DNA of 47,973 bases from Gammaproteobacteria bacterium (GTDB lineage Bacteria > Pseudomonadota > Gammaproteobacteria > Steroidobacterales > PWYM01), in the NCBI GenBank assembly GCA_003567475.1, contig PWZL01000070.1, positions 1-47,973 of the forward strand. Reading direction: 5' to 3'. Shown here piece after piece: positions 39,306 through 44,226 of the stretch. The notes below the pieces were generated by a model, which saw only the letters and a program-made list of their open reading frames with translations, made no database searches and was not told the DNA's origin. Within the stretch, counting starts at the first letter, position 1. Each line of letters starts with the position of its first letter. The position numbers were made by a program, and so were the translations under genes.

Positions 39306-40241
39306 TCAGGAGGTCCGCTCGCTGAGGAACTCGCGGACCGGCGGCAACGACTGCGCCGGCGCCTCTTCGTGGGGCACATGGCCAAGGTCCTCGAAGGACA
39401 CCAGACGCGCATCCGGCAGGGCCGCAAGATAGTCGGCCGCATTGGTGAACGGCACCATCGCATCCTGTTCACCCCACACCAGCAGCGTCGGCGCCTGGAT
39501 GCGGGCCAGCAGAGGCTCCGGCGGCTCGAGCATGACCTGTCCCATGCGATCCAGCAGGGCGTCACGATTCCCGGGGGCACGCAGCAGGTCGTGGTAGCGC
39601 TCCACCACGGGCTCGGACAGTGCAGTGGGGTCGGCATAGGCGGCCTGGAGATTCATCCGCAGCACCGAACGCGGCAGGGCGTGGCGCATCAGCCGCAACA
39701 CCGCCGGGACTTTCGGGGCCACGCCATATTCGAAACCGGGACTGGCGAAACCATCGGGCGCAATGAGCACCAGACGCTCAACGCGCTCGGGAAACTCAGC
39801 GGCAAACCGCCAGGCGATGCGCCCACCCAGGGAATTGCCGACGACACTGGCCCGGTCAAGCTCCAGCTCGTCCATCAGGCCGGCGAGAATCTCCAGACTG
39901 CGCGGATCGCTGTAATCACCGGCAGGATCCTGCCCGGACAAGCCCCCCCCGGGGAGATCGAAGCTGATCACGCGGAACTGCTCGGCGAGCGAGGCCGCCC
40001 AGGGCTCCCAGGTGTGCAAGCTGGCGCCGAAACCATGCAGCAGGATCACCGCCGGTGCGTCATGCGGCCCCTGGTCGCGCAGGTGCAGACGGATCCCGGC
40101 GATGTCCCGGAAATCCTCCGGCCCGTTGGTGTAGCGGGCTTTCAGCTCAGCGACCGGACGGTCGGGCGTCCAGGCCCAGGCCAACGCGACCAGCAGCACG
40201 ATCGCAACCACGGCCGCGACGATCAATACAACAGTTTTCAT
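39306..40241 (-). CDS. Membrane-anchored alpha/beta hydrolase
   Basis: 311-residue hydrolase with an N-terminal membrane helix (MKTVVLIVAAVVAIVLLVALAWAW). Core motifs: LLHGFGASLHTW (oxyanion), VVGNSLGGR (nucleophile Ser), WGEQDAMVPF (acid) and DLGHVPHEEAP (His). The family is large and the substrate unclear. The ATG at 40241 has AGAGGTG 6 nt upstream; a 33-codon extension is shadow. It is followed 8 nt later by the barrel protein. Transcription starts downstream of the strong terminator that ends the small RNA at 40339, so it needs its own promoter. Confidence 0.88.
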   Translation of the reverse strand: MKTVVLIVAAVVAIVLLVALAWAWTPDRPVAELKARYTNGPEDFRDIAGIRLHLRDQGPHDAPAVILLHGFGASLHTWEPWAASLAEQFRVISFDLPGGGLSGQDPAGDYSDPRSLEILAGLMDELELDRASVVGNSLGGRIAWRFAAEFPERVERLVLIAPDGFASPGFEYGVAPKVPAVLRLMRHALPRSVLRMNLQAAYADPTALSEPVVERYHDLLRAPGNRDALLDRMGQVMLEPPEPLLARIQAPTLLVWGEQDAMVPFTNAADYLAALPDARLVSFEDLGHVPHEEAPAQSLPPVREFLSERTS

Positions 40242-40338: not shown

Positions 40339-40366
40339 AAAAAAAAGGGCGGGGATAACCCCGCCC
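40339..40366 (-). terminator. Perfect intrinsic terminator of the small RNA
   Basis: GGGCGGGG-TTAT-CCCCGCCC stem (8 bp, no mismatch) followed by eight U on the minus strand. It ends a transcript with no protein gene and isolates the alpha/beta hydrolase gene downstream. Confidence 0.95.
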
Positions 40367-40540
40367 TGTCTTGTGGCCTAAGCCCTCACCGCCAGAGGCG
40401 GTGGCGCTCACACGGGCTGGCCGCAACGGCACACGAATCCTTCCGTGTGCACGCCCTTCTGAAACAGCATCCGTGCTGTCGGTGGGTCAGAAGGACCAAG
40501 TCGTCGTCCAACATGGGGAGTGGGACATGGCCGACGACAA
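40339..40540 (-). ncRNA. Structured small RNA, possible CsrB/RsmY-class regulator
   Basis: About 200 nt between a strong promoter and a perfect terminator, with no credible protein. The minus-strand RNA folds into successive hairpins. H1: GUCGUC pairs with GACGAC (40533-40538 with 40503-40508). H2: CCUUCUGA/UCAGAAGG (40487-40494 with 40455-40462) enclosing ACAGCA-CGGA-UGCUGU. H3: GCACACG-GAAGGAUU-CGUGUGC (40450-40429). H4: ACCGCC-UCU-GGCGGU (40402-40388) within a GGCC/AGCCC-bounded stem. GGA motifs occur four times: in the H2 loop (ACGGA), the H3 loop (AAGGA), the H3 loop closing edge (ACGGA) and near H1. ANGGA in hairpin loops is the CsrA/RsmA-binding signature. The inverted repeat at 40595-40611 sits near -64, as in Gac-controlled RNAs. 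6S RNA is an alternative, but no long closing stem was found. Confidence 0.7.
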
Positions 40541-40545
40541 TTCGA

Positions 40546-40574
40546 ACACTACTCGCTCGCCCTCGTGATGTCAA
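40546..40574 (-). promoter_or_regulatory. sigma70 promoter of the small RNA
   Basis: Consensus -35 TTGACA (40574-40569), a 17-bp spacer and TAGTGT (40551-40546) on the minus strand. The expected start is near 40539. Confidence 0.8.
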
Positions 40575-40594
40575 GCTTTTGCACAACTAAAATG

Positions 40595-40611
40595 TGTACA
40601 GTTATTGTACA
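40595..40611. promoter_or_regulatory. Inverted repeat, candidate GacA-like upstream activating site
   Basis: TGTACAATAACTGTACA: two TGTACA half-sites 5 bp apart, starting right after the stop codon of the FtsX-AttH gene. It is centred about 64 nt upstream of the predicted small-RNA start. GacA/UvrY sites are TGTAAG-N6-CTTACA at this position; the match is close but not exact, so another regulator is possible. Confidence 0.5.
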
Positions 40612-43600
40612 TCAATACCCGGTCATCTCGAGGTAACCTTCCCCGAGCCGCCGGCCCTGAGCATCCAGGGCCTCCACGAGACCTTCCCAGTAGCGCACGC
40701 GAGTTCGCATCTCCTGCGCCGGCAACACCGCCTTGAGTCGGAACTCTAGAGCCGCCCCCGGCACCGTCACCTGCCATTCGACCGGGTATCGGCTCCCCGT
40801 GACCGGGCTCACCCAGTGACCGACCGGCGTCATCTGGAAGTCTCCCTCTTCTTTTCGCAGCAATTGCCCATCGGGATTCACCAACGTGCCCGCGCTGAAG
40901 GGCGCGGTGTTTCCGCTGGCATCACGGAGCTGGAACAACATCAGATCCCGGCCATCGGCCAGGCTGAGCGACAGCCAGTCCCAGCCGACGACGTCGGGGT
41001 CAAGGACGCTGCTGCCCCACTCCCGGTCCAGCCACGCGCGGCCACTGACCTCGATCCGCTGGCCATCCCAGTGCAGCTCGCCAGTGGTCGGCAGCCGGGT
41101 AAAGCTGAAATAGTGGCTGGCGTTGCCCGGGTCACGACCCTTGCGGCTGTAGCCCGCATCGCCGTGCAGGATCGGCCCCCGCCCGGGTGCGAACTCCAGG
41201 CGCACCGCGAAATGCTCGTCAGCCGCATCCAGCAGCAGCGGCAGGAAGTCTGCCGTGGTACTGGTCAGCTGCCAGTCCTGGATCCAGGCGTTGAAGGGTG
41301 CGGCCTCGACGCCCGCCAGCCCGCCGCCCGGTCGCGCAAAGCGCTCCGCATGGCGATGCTCGCCAGCCTCGACATGGGTCAGCGCGAGATGGGCCATGTA
41401 GACCTGCCGACTCTGCCAGCCCCGTTCCGACCCGGCGTCCGGGACGTGCTCCGGGCGTGGGCGCAGGGAAAAACGGAACTGCGTGTACTGCACACCGAAA
41501 CGCCGGCCGGCGACATCGCGCAGCACCGCGGTCAGGTACCACCACTCGAGACGATGATCAGGGTGCTCGCCGTGATCGTCAGGAAACTCGAATGGCCGCG
41601 GCCCGGTGACCAGCGCGTGGCGCTCCCTGCCGGCCTCTCCGGCCAGCAAGCCGGCGACATCCAGGGCCGCCGATGCGTCAACGCGATCCACGGGCTTGCT
41701 GCAACCCGCGAGCCAGACCCCAAACACCAGGATCGCCACCCCCGCCAGCGGCGCGCGCGGCACGCCCGGCGCCGGCAGCCGATGCGGTGCACCGCGGATC
41801 GAGGCCGCGGCGAGCACCCCGGCGACCAGCGCGGTCAGCACCGCAAGCAGCGCGCCCTGCAGCAGCGGCCAGGCGAGAATCTCGAACTGCATCGACCAGC
41901 CGAACGCCCGGCGGTTGATGACAAACACGAGCAGCGCGGCCAGGACCGTTCCCAGTGGTACCGCCACGACTGCGGTCGCCAGCCCGAGCATCCCGGTCTC
42001 CAGCACCGCCTGGCGCCTGAGCGCCGGCACCCCGAGCCCGAGGGCACGCAGCGTCTTGCGCAGCGGCCGACGATCGAGCAACCAGGCCAGCAAGGCACCC
42101 AGCATGCCGAGCACCGCCGCCGCCGCCACCAGCACCTTGAGCACCTGGGTCACCGCGAACGTCCGATCGAAGATTTCGAGCGTACGCTCCCGCAGCGTGG
42201 CGGCCTCGGAGAGCAGCAAGCCAGGATGCGCCGCGAGCACTGCTTGCAGTTGCGGGCGCAGCGCCTCGGGACGCGCCGTGAGCACGCCGAGACTGCCCGG
42301 GCGGTCATCACCGCTCCAGCGCGCGAGGCCGGGCATGGACATGAGCACGACCCCGCGATCACTGAGGTAGTCGCGGTACACCCCGAGCACGGGCAGCGAC
42401 ACCGGGCCGGCAGGGAACGCCAGACGAATGGGATCGCCGAGCTCCAGGCCGCGACGCATGGCCAGCGGCTCGGAGATCAGCACGCCCTCCCCGCGCTCGA
42501 ACGCCTCGCCGGCACGGCCCCGGATCAGGCCCGGCACCCCCAGGGGATGGTCCGCCGCCCGCAACAGCAGGGTGTCTGCGCCCTCGCGCAGGCGCAGAAA
42601 TCGCGTGGCCACGACCCCCTCGACTTCCGGCAAGGCCAGCACCGCCTCCCGGGCCGCCCGCAGCGGCGCGTCGCGGACATCAGGGTGGACGGCGCCATCG
42701 ACGCTGATGACGAACGCCCCGGCCACCGATTCATCCATCCAGGTGGCGACGCTGTCGCGGAAGTTGGCGACCATCAGGTCCAGCGCGATCACCGTCGCAA
42801 CCGCCAGGGCGAGCCCGGCCAGCGCCACGCGGGTGCGCACCAGGCCGGCCACGCTGTCGCGCAGCGTCATGCGCGTCAGCAGGCCCGCGCGGAGGGCAGG
42901 CAGTCGACCGACGACCGCCACCACGCTCTGCAGCGCGGCGGGCACCAGCAGCACCCCGGCCACCGCCACCAGGAACAGGCCGACAAACCCGGCCACCAGA
43001 CCCTGGAAGGCCAGCAAGACGAGCAGGCCGCCCGCCGCGGTGGCCGCCGAGAGCCCCAGTTCAAGGCGCAACCGCCGGGTGCGCGCCGCCAGGCGATTCG
43101 CAGCCTGCACGGCGGGGGCGAGACCACCCGCCAGGGCGGCGAGCAGACCCAACGCGAGCCCTGTCAGCATCACCCCGGGTTGCGGCGCCAAGGTCTGCAC
43201 TTCCACGCGGAAGTACAGGTCGCTGATATTGGCGGCGACGAGGCGAACCAGCCAGCGTGCCAACAGCGTCCCAGCCAACGCGCCCAGCAGGCCACCGGCG
43301 ATACCGAGCAGCGCGGCTTCCCGCAGCACCAGCCCCCGGAGTGCGGCGGCATCCAGCCCCAGCGCGCGCAGGCGCGCGAACAGCACCTCGCGCTGGGCGA
43401 CGAGGTGCGTCATGGTGCTGTAGACCAGCAGCAGACCGACCAGCAGGGTGAGCAGCGACAAGGCCAGCAGGTTCAGCCGGTAGGCCCGGGTCATGTCGGT
43501 GACCGCCTGGCTGCGGGCCACCGTGGCCACCAGCTCCAACGCGGCGGGCTGCCAGTCCGCGACCAGCGCCACCTGCGCGGCGGAGAGCACAAGATCGACA

Positions 43601-44226
43601 CGCGAAAGCTCGCCCGCGCTGTCCAGAACCCGCTGTGCACCGGCGATATCCATCAGCAAGGTGTCGCCGCCCAGCGGCAGCAGCGCCTCATCGGCAATCG
43701 CGAGCACGCGGAGCGCGTACTCGCGACCGGCGTGGGTCACCCGGAGCAGGCCGTCCACAGCGAGGTCCAGGCTTTCTGCCAGCGTCTCGGGTACCACCAC
43801 CGCCGTCAGGTCCCCCACCAGTGCGGTGATCTCCGGTCCCACACCCCCGACCGCAACACCCTCGACGCGAAGCGCTGCCTCGGCGAGGGGATCGATGCCC
43901 AGCAACGCGAGGCTCCGCGGCCGGTGCTCGCCGGCAAGCGCGACACGGCCTTCGATCACGGGTGCCGCCGGCGCGGTGGGCACACGCCGCCGCAGCTCGG
44001 CGTACCAGGCCTCATCCAACCGGCGATCCAACGGCAGCAGCTGATGAGTCGCGATGCCGAAGGCCTGGCGGCTGGATAGCGCGAAGGCGTCTTCCGCCGC
44101 ACCAGAGGCGCTCTGCACCGAGACCCAGGCCGCCACCCCCACGGCAATGCCGAGAAGTGCGAGCAGACTCTGGGCGCGATGGGCGGCCAGATAGCGCAGG
44201 CTCGCGCGCAGCAGCAGCGGGTTCAC
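40612..44226 (-). CDS. FtsX-type ABC permease fused to AttH/CrtC-like lipocalin lipoprotein domain
   Basis: 1204 residues without interruption. Residues 1 to about 815 are a MacB/FtsX-type permease with two MacB-like extracellular parts and at least eight membrane helices in paired blocks (LALLGIAVGVAAWVSV at the start; LLALSLLTLLVGLLLVY, LLGIAGGLLGALAGTLLA, and later helices). Then PRAPLAGVAILVFGVWLAG-C842 is a lipoprotein signal peptide with a perfect L-A-G-C box, and 843-1204 is an AttH/CrtC lipocalin-like domain (HPDHRLEWWYLTAVLRD, FTRLPTTGELHWDGQ, SGRAWLDREWGSSVLDPDVVGWDW). In related operons these are separate genes downstream of the ATPase. An internal GTG at 41763 could start the lipoprotein alone, but no clear ribosome-binding site is seen. 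It starts at GTG overlapping the ATPase stop (GTGA). Confidence 0.85.
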   Translation of the reverse strand: MNPLLLRASLRYLAAHRAQSLLALLGIAVGVAAWVSVQSASGAAEDAFALSSRQAFGIATHQLLPLDRRLDEAWYAELRRRVPTAPAAPVIEGRVALAGEHRPRSLALLGIDPLAEAALRVEGVAVGGVGPEITALVGDLTAVVVPETLAESLDLAVDGLLRVTHAGREYALRVLAIADEALLPLGGDTLLMDIAGAQRVLDSAGELSRVDLVLSAAQVALVADWQPAALELVATVARSQAVTDMTRAYRLNLLALSLLTLLVGLLLVYSTMTHLVAQREVLFARLRALGLDAAALRGLVLREAALLGIAGGLLGALAGTLLARWLVRLVAANISDLYFRVEVQTLAPQPGVMLTGLALGLLAALAGGLAPAVQAANRLAARTRRLRLELGLSAATAAGGLLVLLAFQGLVAGFVGLFLVAVAGVLLVPAALQSVVAVVGRLPALRAGLLTRMTLRDSVAGLVRTRVALAGLALAVATVIALDLMVANFRDSVATWMDESVAGAFVISVDGAVHPDVRDAPLRAAREAVLALPEVEGVVATRFLRLREGADTLLLRAADHPLGVPGLIRGRAGEAFERGEGVLISEPLAMRRGLELGDPIRLAFPAGPVSLPVLGVYRDYLSDRGVVLMSMPGLARWSGDDRPGSLGVLTARPEALRPQLQAVLAAHPGLLLSEAATLRERTLEIFDRTFAVTQVLKVLVAAAAVLGMLGALLAWLLDRRPLRKTLRALGLGVPALRRQAVLETGMLGLATAVVAVPLGTVLAALLVFVINRRAFGWSMQFEILAWPLLQGALLAVLTALVAGVLAAASIRGAPHRLPAPGVPRAPLAGVAILVFGVWLAGCSKPVDRVDASAALDVAGLLAGEAGRERHALVTGPRPFEFPDDHGEHPDHRLEWWYLTAVLRDVAGRRFGVQYTQFRFSLRPRPEHVPDAGSERGWQSRQVYMAHLALTHVEAGEHRHAERFARPGGGLAGVEAAPFNAWIQDWQLTSTTADFLPLLLDAADEHFAVRLEFAPGRGPILHGDAGYSRKGRDPGNASHYFSFTRLPTTGELHWDGQRIEVSGRAWLDREWGSSVLDPDVVGWDWLSLSLADGRDLMLFQLRDASGNTAPFSAGTLVNPDGQLLRKEEGDFQMTPVGHWVSPVTGSRYPVEWQVTVPGAALEFRLKAVLPAQEMRTRVRYWEGLVEALDAQGRRLGEGYLEMTGY

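What the first reader, a model, noticed from the sequence alone, without database searches (positions are those of the whole stretch)
40339..40611. Orphan structured small RNA with promoter, terminator and a Gac-like upstream site
A consensus TTGACA promoter drives about 200 nt with no protein, ending in a perfect 8-bp terminator with U8. At least four nested hairpins are visible, two with GGA in the loop, and four GGA motifs in total. A TGTACA-N5-TGTACA repeat sits at about -64, where GacA sites lie in rsmY/rsmZ promoters. Together this suggests a CsrA-sequestering RNA of a lineage where such RNAs are poorly described. Four GGA motifs is fewer than in classic members.
Basis: partly seen in the sequence, partly recalled or inferred. 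Interest (0 to 1): 0.85.

Follow-up and report, generated by a model that had tools for sequence, protein, structure and literature searches.

The report
Genus-specific CsrA-binding small RNA candidate
A gene for a 200-base regulatory RNA, kept in every available species of an uncultured soda-lake bacterial genus, carries two hairpin loops of the shape that the global regulator CsrA grips plus an unchanging loop that looks built to cover ribosome-binding sites, so it is probably a new, small Csr-type regulatory RNA, but not one run by the classical Gac system.

Summary
The feature is real: a stand-alone sRNA gene on the minus strand, about 40539 to 40339 (201 nt), with its own sigma-70 promoter and strong terminator. 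It occurs in the same neighbourhood in all five genomes of its genus (65-97% identity), with compensatory changes in the stems (14 of 66 pairs). I found it nowhere else in 396 order and 369 class genomes. The CsrA reading gains support. Both conserved GGA motifs sit in ANGGAN hexaloops; loop changes fall only on the N positions; none of 5,541 shuffles has two such hairpins. A canonical CsrA is present. This locus is also the best PrrB/RsmZ match in each of the five genomes, but below Rfam's cut-off (19.6-34.4 against 44 bits). Only two of the four GGAs are conserved and loop-borne, enough for one CsrA dimer. The Gac reading fails: the boxes are TGTACA repeats, not TGTAAG-N6-CTTACA, and no GacA orthologue was found. 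The longest invariant run is not a GGA element but a C-rich 5' loop complementary to a Shine-Dalgarno plus AUG. Best explanation: a McaS-like RNA that binds one CsrA dimer and probably also base-pairs with mRNAs. No transcript or binding data exist.

The parts
40339..40539 (-). predicted sRNA (about 201 nt)
   Evidence: conserved with covariation in 5 genomes; fold z -6.3
40595..40611 (-). upstream boxes 1 and 2, TGTACA-N5-TGTACA
   Evidence: box 2 is TGTAYA in all copies, box 1 is TGTANA in four of five genomes; TGTAYA-N5-TGTAYA occurs nowhere else in G000, G003 or G004
40580..40585 (-). upstream box 3, TGTGCA, 5 bp before the -35
   Evidence: TGTDCA at fixed spacing (9 from box 2, 5 to the -35) in all copies
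40569..40574 (-). -35 element TTGACA
   Evidence: conserved in all copies, TTGATA in G002a
40546..40551 (-). -10 element TAGTGT, 17-nt spacer
   Evidence: TAGTGT/TAACAT/TAGCCT/TACCAT in four genomes; in G002 TACACT with a shifted spacer
40500..40538 (-). hairpin H1 with C-rich loop
   Evidence: stem covaries at two pairs
40512..40529 (-). invariant loop region CAUGUCCCACUCCCCAUG
   Evidence: longest invariant run of the RNA, P = 0.00045 for shuffled columns
40454..40496 (-). hairpin H2 region, hexaloop ANGGAN (ACGGAU), core CACGGAUG
   Evidence: CANGGAYG in all six copies
40429..40450 (-). hairpin H3, hexaloop AAGGAU
   Evidence: ANGGAN in all six copies; stem with 4 double-sided changes
40375..40427 (-). 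domain H4: GGCC...GGCC stem with apical hairpin; AGCCC and GAGC compete for GGGCU
   Evidence: invariant GUGAGCGCC and UUAGGCC; apical stem covaries
40339..40368 (-). intrinsic terminator, 9-bp G+C-rich stem and U8

Best explanation
It is a stand-alone regulatory RNA of the Csr/Rsm network of this genus, working most like E. coli McaS. A dedicated activator binding the TGTACA boxes (not GacA) switches on the promoter; the 201-nt RNA ends at its own terminator. Hairpins H2 and H3 each present an ANGGAN hexaloop, their GGAs 32 nt apart, and together hold one CsrA dimer, lowering free CsrA when the RNA is abundant. The C-rich loop of H1 is free to pair with GGAG-type Shine-Dalgarno/AUG regions and block translation of selected mRNAs. 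Shown here: the gene, its structure, its conservation, and the loop identities. Inferred: transcription, CsrA binding, net antagonism of CsrA, mRNA pairing, the activator.
For: Conservation at one syntenic place in 5 of 5 genus genomes. Structure: 94.2% of cells paired, 31 double-sided changes against 10.2 in shuffles. Two ANGGAN hexaloops: H2 ACGGAU/AUGGAU/ACGGAC, H3 AAGGAU/AGGGAU/AAGGAA. All four substitutions lie at N positions (chance about (1/3)^4 = 0.012), and 0 of 5,541 dinucleotide shuffles have two such hairpins. H3's AAGGAU is the loop of P. aeruginosa RsmZ hairpin 2 bound by RsmN (PMC3791407); ANGGAN is the RsmE/CsrA recognition loop (PMC7652899). CsrA present in all five genomes, canonical where complete. 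The best PrrB/RsmZ match genome-wide in every one of the five genomes is this locus, whereas the RsmY and CsrB models do not pick it. H1 loop invariant over 18 nt, P = 0.00045, and its complement reads GGGGAG-N6-AUG. McaS precedent: four GGA, two functional, sponge plus base-pairing (PMC10729762).
Against: Only two exposed GGA; SELEX ligands mostly had stems of four or fewer pairs (PMC7652899), whereas H2 and H3 have 5-9. A single-dimer RNA must be very abundant to titrate CsrA. GGA loops also occur in RNAs that CsrA merely binds or stabilises. H4 and H1 are as conserved as the GGA loops and are not explained by CsrA. In G002a the minimum-energy fold leaves H3 with a larger loop, and that of G002b does not form H2. 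Near matches to the H1-loop complement were only mildly above the reversed control (48, six of them self, against 29), so no target is demonstrated. No expression data.
Confidence: 0.52

Rival explanations
1. It is chiefly a base-pairing sRNA: the C-rich H1 loop binds Shine-Dalgarno regions (as LhrC or RsaA do), and the GGA hexaloops are incidental or let CsrA modulate its stability or pairing.
For: The H1 loop CAUGUCCCACUCCCCAUG is the longest invariant stretch and is an exact complement of SD-N6-AUG. One- or two-mismatch complements lie at real starts, for instance the orthologous pairs L078/L080 and L085/L087. UCCC loops that pair with SDs are known (PMC4132741; RsaA, PMC3961350).
Against: Two separate GGA hexaloops are kept with changes only at N positions, which pure base-pairing does not explain; starts with GGAG are expected to match any C-rich loop; no target conserved in all five genomes was shown.
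Confidence: 0.25
2. A classical Gac/Rsm RNA: a GacA-activated RsmY/Z-type sponge.
For: Sub-threshold RsmZ match at this locus in all genus genomes; boxes centred near -64.
Against: No GacA hit at E 1e-20 in G000, G003 or G004; the best in G001/G002 are 34-36% identical and far below the UvrY/GacA cut-off. Boxes are TGTACA-N5-TGTACA-N9-TGTDCA, not TGTAAG-N6-CTTACA (PMC11837529). Only two conserved exposed GGA.
Confidence: 0.08
3. A structured RNA with some other protein- or RNA-bound role, in which H4 (invariant GUGAGCGCC, UUAGGCC) is the active part.
For: H4 is highly conserved with covariation and a possible alternative pairing AGCCC/GGGCU against GAGC/GCUU.
Against: No Rfam family at gathering score anywhere in the window; it does not explain the hexaloops.
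Confidence: 0.1
4. It is a 3'-UTR product of the upstream FtsX/CrtC gene, processed from that mRNA like RsmU, or a 5' UTR of the downstream hydrolase.
For: No terminator was found between the CrtC stop (40612) and the RNA; the RNA starts about 73 nt after it.
Against: Conserved -35/-10 and box array between stop and RNA; own terminator; downstream hydrolase gene absent next to the RNA in G002 while the RNA stays.
Confidence: 0.05

Closest known systems
McaS (E. coli)
   Same: few GGA motifs, two of them functional; binds CsrA; also base-pairs with mRNAs (PMC10729762)
   Different: no sequence relation shown; this RNA is about twice as long (McaS length from memory), with its own C-rich loop hairpin and H4 domain
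RsmZ/PrrB (RF00166)
   Same: ANGGAN hexaloop hairpins, G+C-rich terminator; best Rfam match at this locus
   Different: 19.6-34.4 bits against a cut-off of 44; two exposed GGA only; no Gac box or GacA; extra H1 and H4 domains
RsmU (Xanthomonas, PMC7694677)
   Same: genus-restricted RsmA-binding RNA outside all Rfam families, with 3-4 GGA
   Different: RsmU is processed from a 3' UTR; this RNA has its own conserved promoter; the two sequences were not compared
LhrC/RsaA-type sRNAs with UCCC loops (PMC4132741, PMC3961350)
   Same: C-rich loop complementary to Shine-Dalgarno sequences
   Different: families of Gram-positive bacteria, no CsrA hexaloops known to me, no homology shown

Membership tests
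PrrB/RsmZ (RF00166) | covariance model score at or above 44 bits | tested here: not met
   27.8 bits in the window, 19.6-34.4 over five genomes
PrrB/RsmZ (RF00166) | several GGA-bearing hairpin loops | tested here: inconclusive
   two conserved ANGGAN hexaloops only
PrrB/RsmZ (RF00166) | GacA-dependent promoter with TGTAAG-N6-CTTACA | tested here: not met
   boxes are TGTACA-type; no GacA orthologue
CsrB (RF00018) | covariance model match | tested here: not met
   no match at E 1 in five genomes
RsmY (RF00195) | covariance model match at this locus | tested here: not met
   only scattered sub-threshold matches elsewhere, many of them the 3' terminator end of the model
CsrA-sequestering RNAs (functional class) | GGA in loops of stable hairpins, ANGGAN | tested here: met
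   H2 and H3 in all six copies by sequence; minimum-energy folds show both in four of six
CsrA-sequestering RNAs (functional class) | CsrA present in the genome | tested here: met
   5 of 5 genomes
CsrA-sequestering RNAs (functional class) | binds and antagonises CsrA | not testable with these tools
   needs EMSA, pull-down, reporter
SD-blocking base-pairing sRNAs | accessible loop complementary to target ribosome-binding sites | tested here: inconclusive
   loop invariant and SD-complementary; no target conserved in all genomes

The most novel reading that the evidence does not exclude
A new family of dual-function Csr RNA in a gammaproteobacterial lineage without a detectable GacA: one CsrA dimer clamped on paired hexaloops gates an invariant anti-Shine-Dalgarno loop, and a dedicated non-Gac regulator drives it through a three-box promoter found nowhere else in the genome.
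Probability: 0.3. Interest if true: 0.65.

Novelty: new variant of a known kind. Interest (0 to 1): 0.52.

Why it matters
Csr systems are understood largely through Gac-driven sponges with many GGA motifs. A conserved, low-valency CsrA-binding RNA in a lineage without a detectable GacA would show that the sponge layer can be rebuilt and placed under another regulator, and would give a clean case of one RNA joining CsrA titration with mRNA pairing. It also shows that Rfam's Rsm models miss such RNAs at their cut-offs.

Tried and rejected
Rfam at gathering score: nothing in the window. Other sub-threshold Rfam hits (SorY, ar35, STnc320 and more) centre on the terminator hairpin. Weak R1 hits in the order (at most 30 bits) were read for the best 17: all are strong terminators behind unrelated sequence, and the fetched ones lack the H1, H2 and H4 motifs at the match. 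The one-mismatch H1 hit in G624 (L089) lacks the rest of the RNA. A peptide reading of the H1 region (MSHSPCW... on the RNA strand, MADDN... on the other) was rejected: the frame is not conserved (G002 stops at once) and the stem changes are compensatory. An OmpR-family reading of the boxes (hexamer-N5-hexamer as in the PhoP box, PMC3098285) was considered but not adopted: in G002 the N5 pair is lost and the pair conserved in all copies is boxes 2 and 3 with N9, so the class of regulator stays open. The organism could not be named beyond Gammaproteobacteria MAGs.

Full report
Observation. The element lies on the minus strand between the stop codon of an FtsX/CrtC-lipocalin gene (40612) and the probable ATG of an alpha/beta hydrolase gene at 40240. 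Promoter TTGACA (40574-40569), 17 nt, TAGTGT (40551-40546); RNA about 40539-40339; 9-bp terminator with eight T. The RNA folds far better than shuffles (z -6.3). Four GGA motifs, two of them fully exposed in hairpin loops.

Conservation. A DNA search of 97 genomes (own and relatives) found the element only in the five genomes of the genus (G002 has it on two short contigs 96% alike, either strain variants or a duplication). Two of these are MAGs whose contigs match in length RECU01000074.1 (DLM2.Bin61) and SKYU01000119.1 (CSSed162cmB_305, named like the bins of the Cock Soda Lake study, PMC6704655). Identity of the RNA ranges from 97% down to 65-68%. A covariance model from the six copies scored 192-230 bits on them, while nothing else in 396 genomes of the order exceeded 30 bits, and nothing else passed E 1e-6 in 369 genomes of the class (fast filters, so weak relatives could be lost). 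The best weak hits are terminators. The neighbourhood is kept: FtsX/CrtC gene upstream, penicillin acylase-like gene downstream; in G002 the hydrolase is missing beside it but the RNA stays, so the RNA is a gene of its own.

Structure. RNAalifold and explicit counting agree: five domains, 66 pairs, 94.2% of cells paired, 14 pairs with a change on both sides, 31 such cells against 10.2 in shuffles, and every slid control far lower. With six sequences from five genomes, and G002 supplying many of the changes, this is strong but not unlimited evidence.

CsrA sites. H2 ends in C[ANGGAN]G (CACGGAUG, CAUGGAUG, CACGGACG) and H3 in AAGGAU, AGGGAU or AAGGAA. All four substitutions seen within the two loops are at the N positions (chance about 0.012 if uniform). 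None of 5,541 dinucleotide shuffles of the RNA gave two such hairpins and 8 gave one. ANGGAN is the loop recognised by RsmE, and AAGGAU is the very loop of RsmZ hairpin 2 in the RsmN complex (PMC7652899, PMC3791407). The other two GGA are mostly paired and not conserved (the one in H1 is lost in G002, the first one in H3 is lost in G004). The minimum-energy fold of G002a opens H3's top and that of G002b is globally different, so both hexaloops are seen in the fold in four of six copies. All five genomes have CsrA; the four with a complete frame have the canonical sequence.

Rfam. At gathering score nothing matches. Below it, PrrB/RsmZ is first (27.8 bits) and matches mainly H3 and the terminator. 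Genome-wide, this locus is the best RsmZ match in all five genomes (19.6-34.4 bits). These are homologous loci, so they count as one observation. RsmY and CsrB do not pick it. It is therefore not filed as an RsmZ; it looks like a CsrA-binding RNA at the level of its loops.

Promoter. In front of the -35 stand three boxes with fixed spacing: TGTANA-N5-TGTAYA-N9-TGTDCA-N5-TTGAYA; box 1 is lost in G002. TGTAYA-N5-TGTAYA occurs nowhere else in G000, G003 or G004, which suggests a dedicated regulator. It is not the Gac box TGTAAG-N6-CTTACA (PMC11837529).

The C-rich loop. CAUGUCCCACUCCCCAUG in H1 is invariant in all copies, the longest such run (P = 0.00045 under column shuffling). Its complement, GGGGAGUGGGACAUG, is a Shine-Dalgarno, a six-base spacer and AUG. 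Near complements are found at real starts in the genus, including two pairs of orthologues (L078/L080; L085/L087). Any purine-rich SD would match such a loop, and the count over a reversed control is only mildly raised, so these are candidates. Loops with UCCC that block SDs are known from LhrC and RsaA (PMC4132741, PMC3961350).

Synthesis. A conserved sRNA gene with two CsrA-type hexaloops (one dimer's worth) and an anti-SD loop resembles McaS, which has four GGA of which two work, binds CsrA, and base-pairs with mRNAs (PMC10729762). Shown: gene, fold, loops, promoter boxes, absence of a detectable GacA. Inferred: expression, binding, antagonism, pairing. My probabilities: true sRNA gene about 0.95; binds CsrA about 0.75; lowers CsrA activity in the cell about 0.5; also base-pairs with mRNAs about 0.45.

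Noticed in passing
window 40612-44226 (-): One 1204-aa open frame joins an FtsX/MacB-type ABC permease to a CrtC/lipocalin domain (PF02687, PF12704, PF07143, PF17186); relatives in L014 and L015 match over the full length 1-1204.
   Followed up: partly
L013: G002 carries a second CsrA-like protein with an insertion (LTITRRVGETIHIFPAEDLDPNMTVGELFGD...), besides a canonical one cut at a contig edge.
   Followed up: no
L006:590-801 and L007:597-809: G002 has two 96%-identical copies of the locus on short contigs; strain mixture or duplication.
   Followed up: no
L078, L080, L085, L087: Starts with near-perfect complement to the H1 loop: a 188-190-aa protein with a signal-like N-terminus (L078, L080), and a 247-aa protein beginning MTDAQGWRRLFGVLGPSTNTIVQPDFD (L085, L087).
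   Followed up: partly
window 40375-40427 (-): H4 has two competing pairings for the conserved GGGCUU (AGCCC or GAGC), which could be a switch or a pseudoknot.
   Followed up: no
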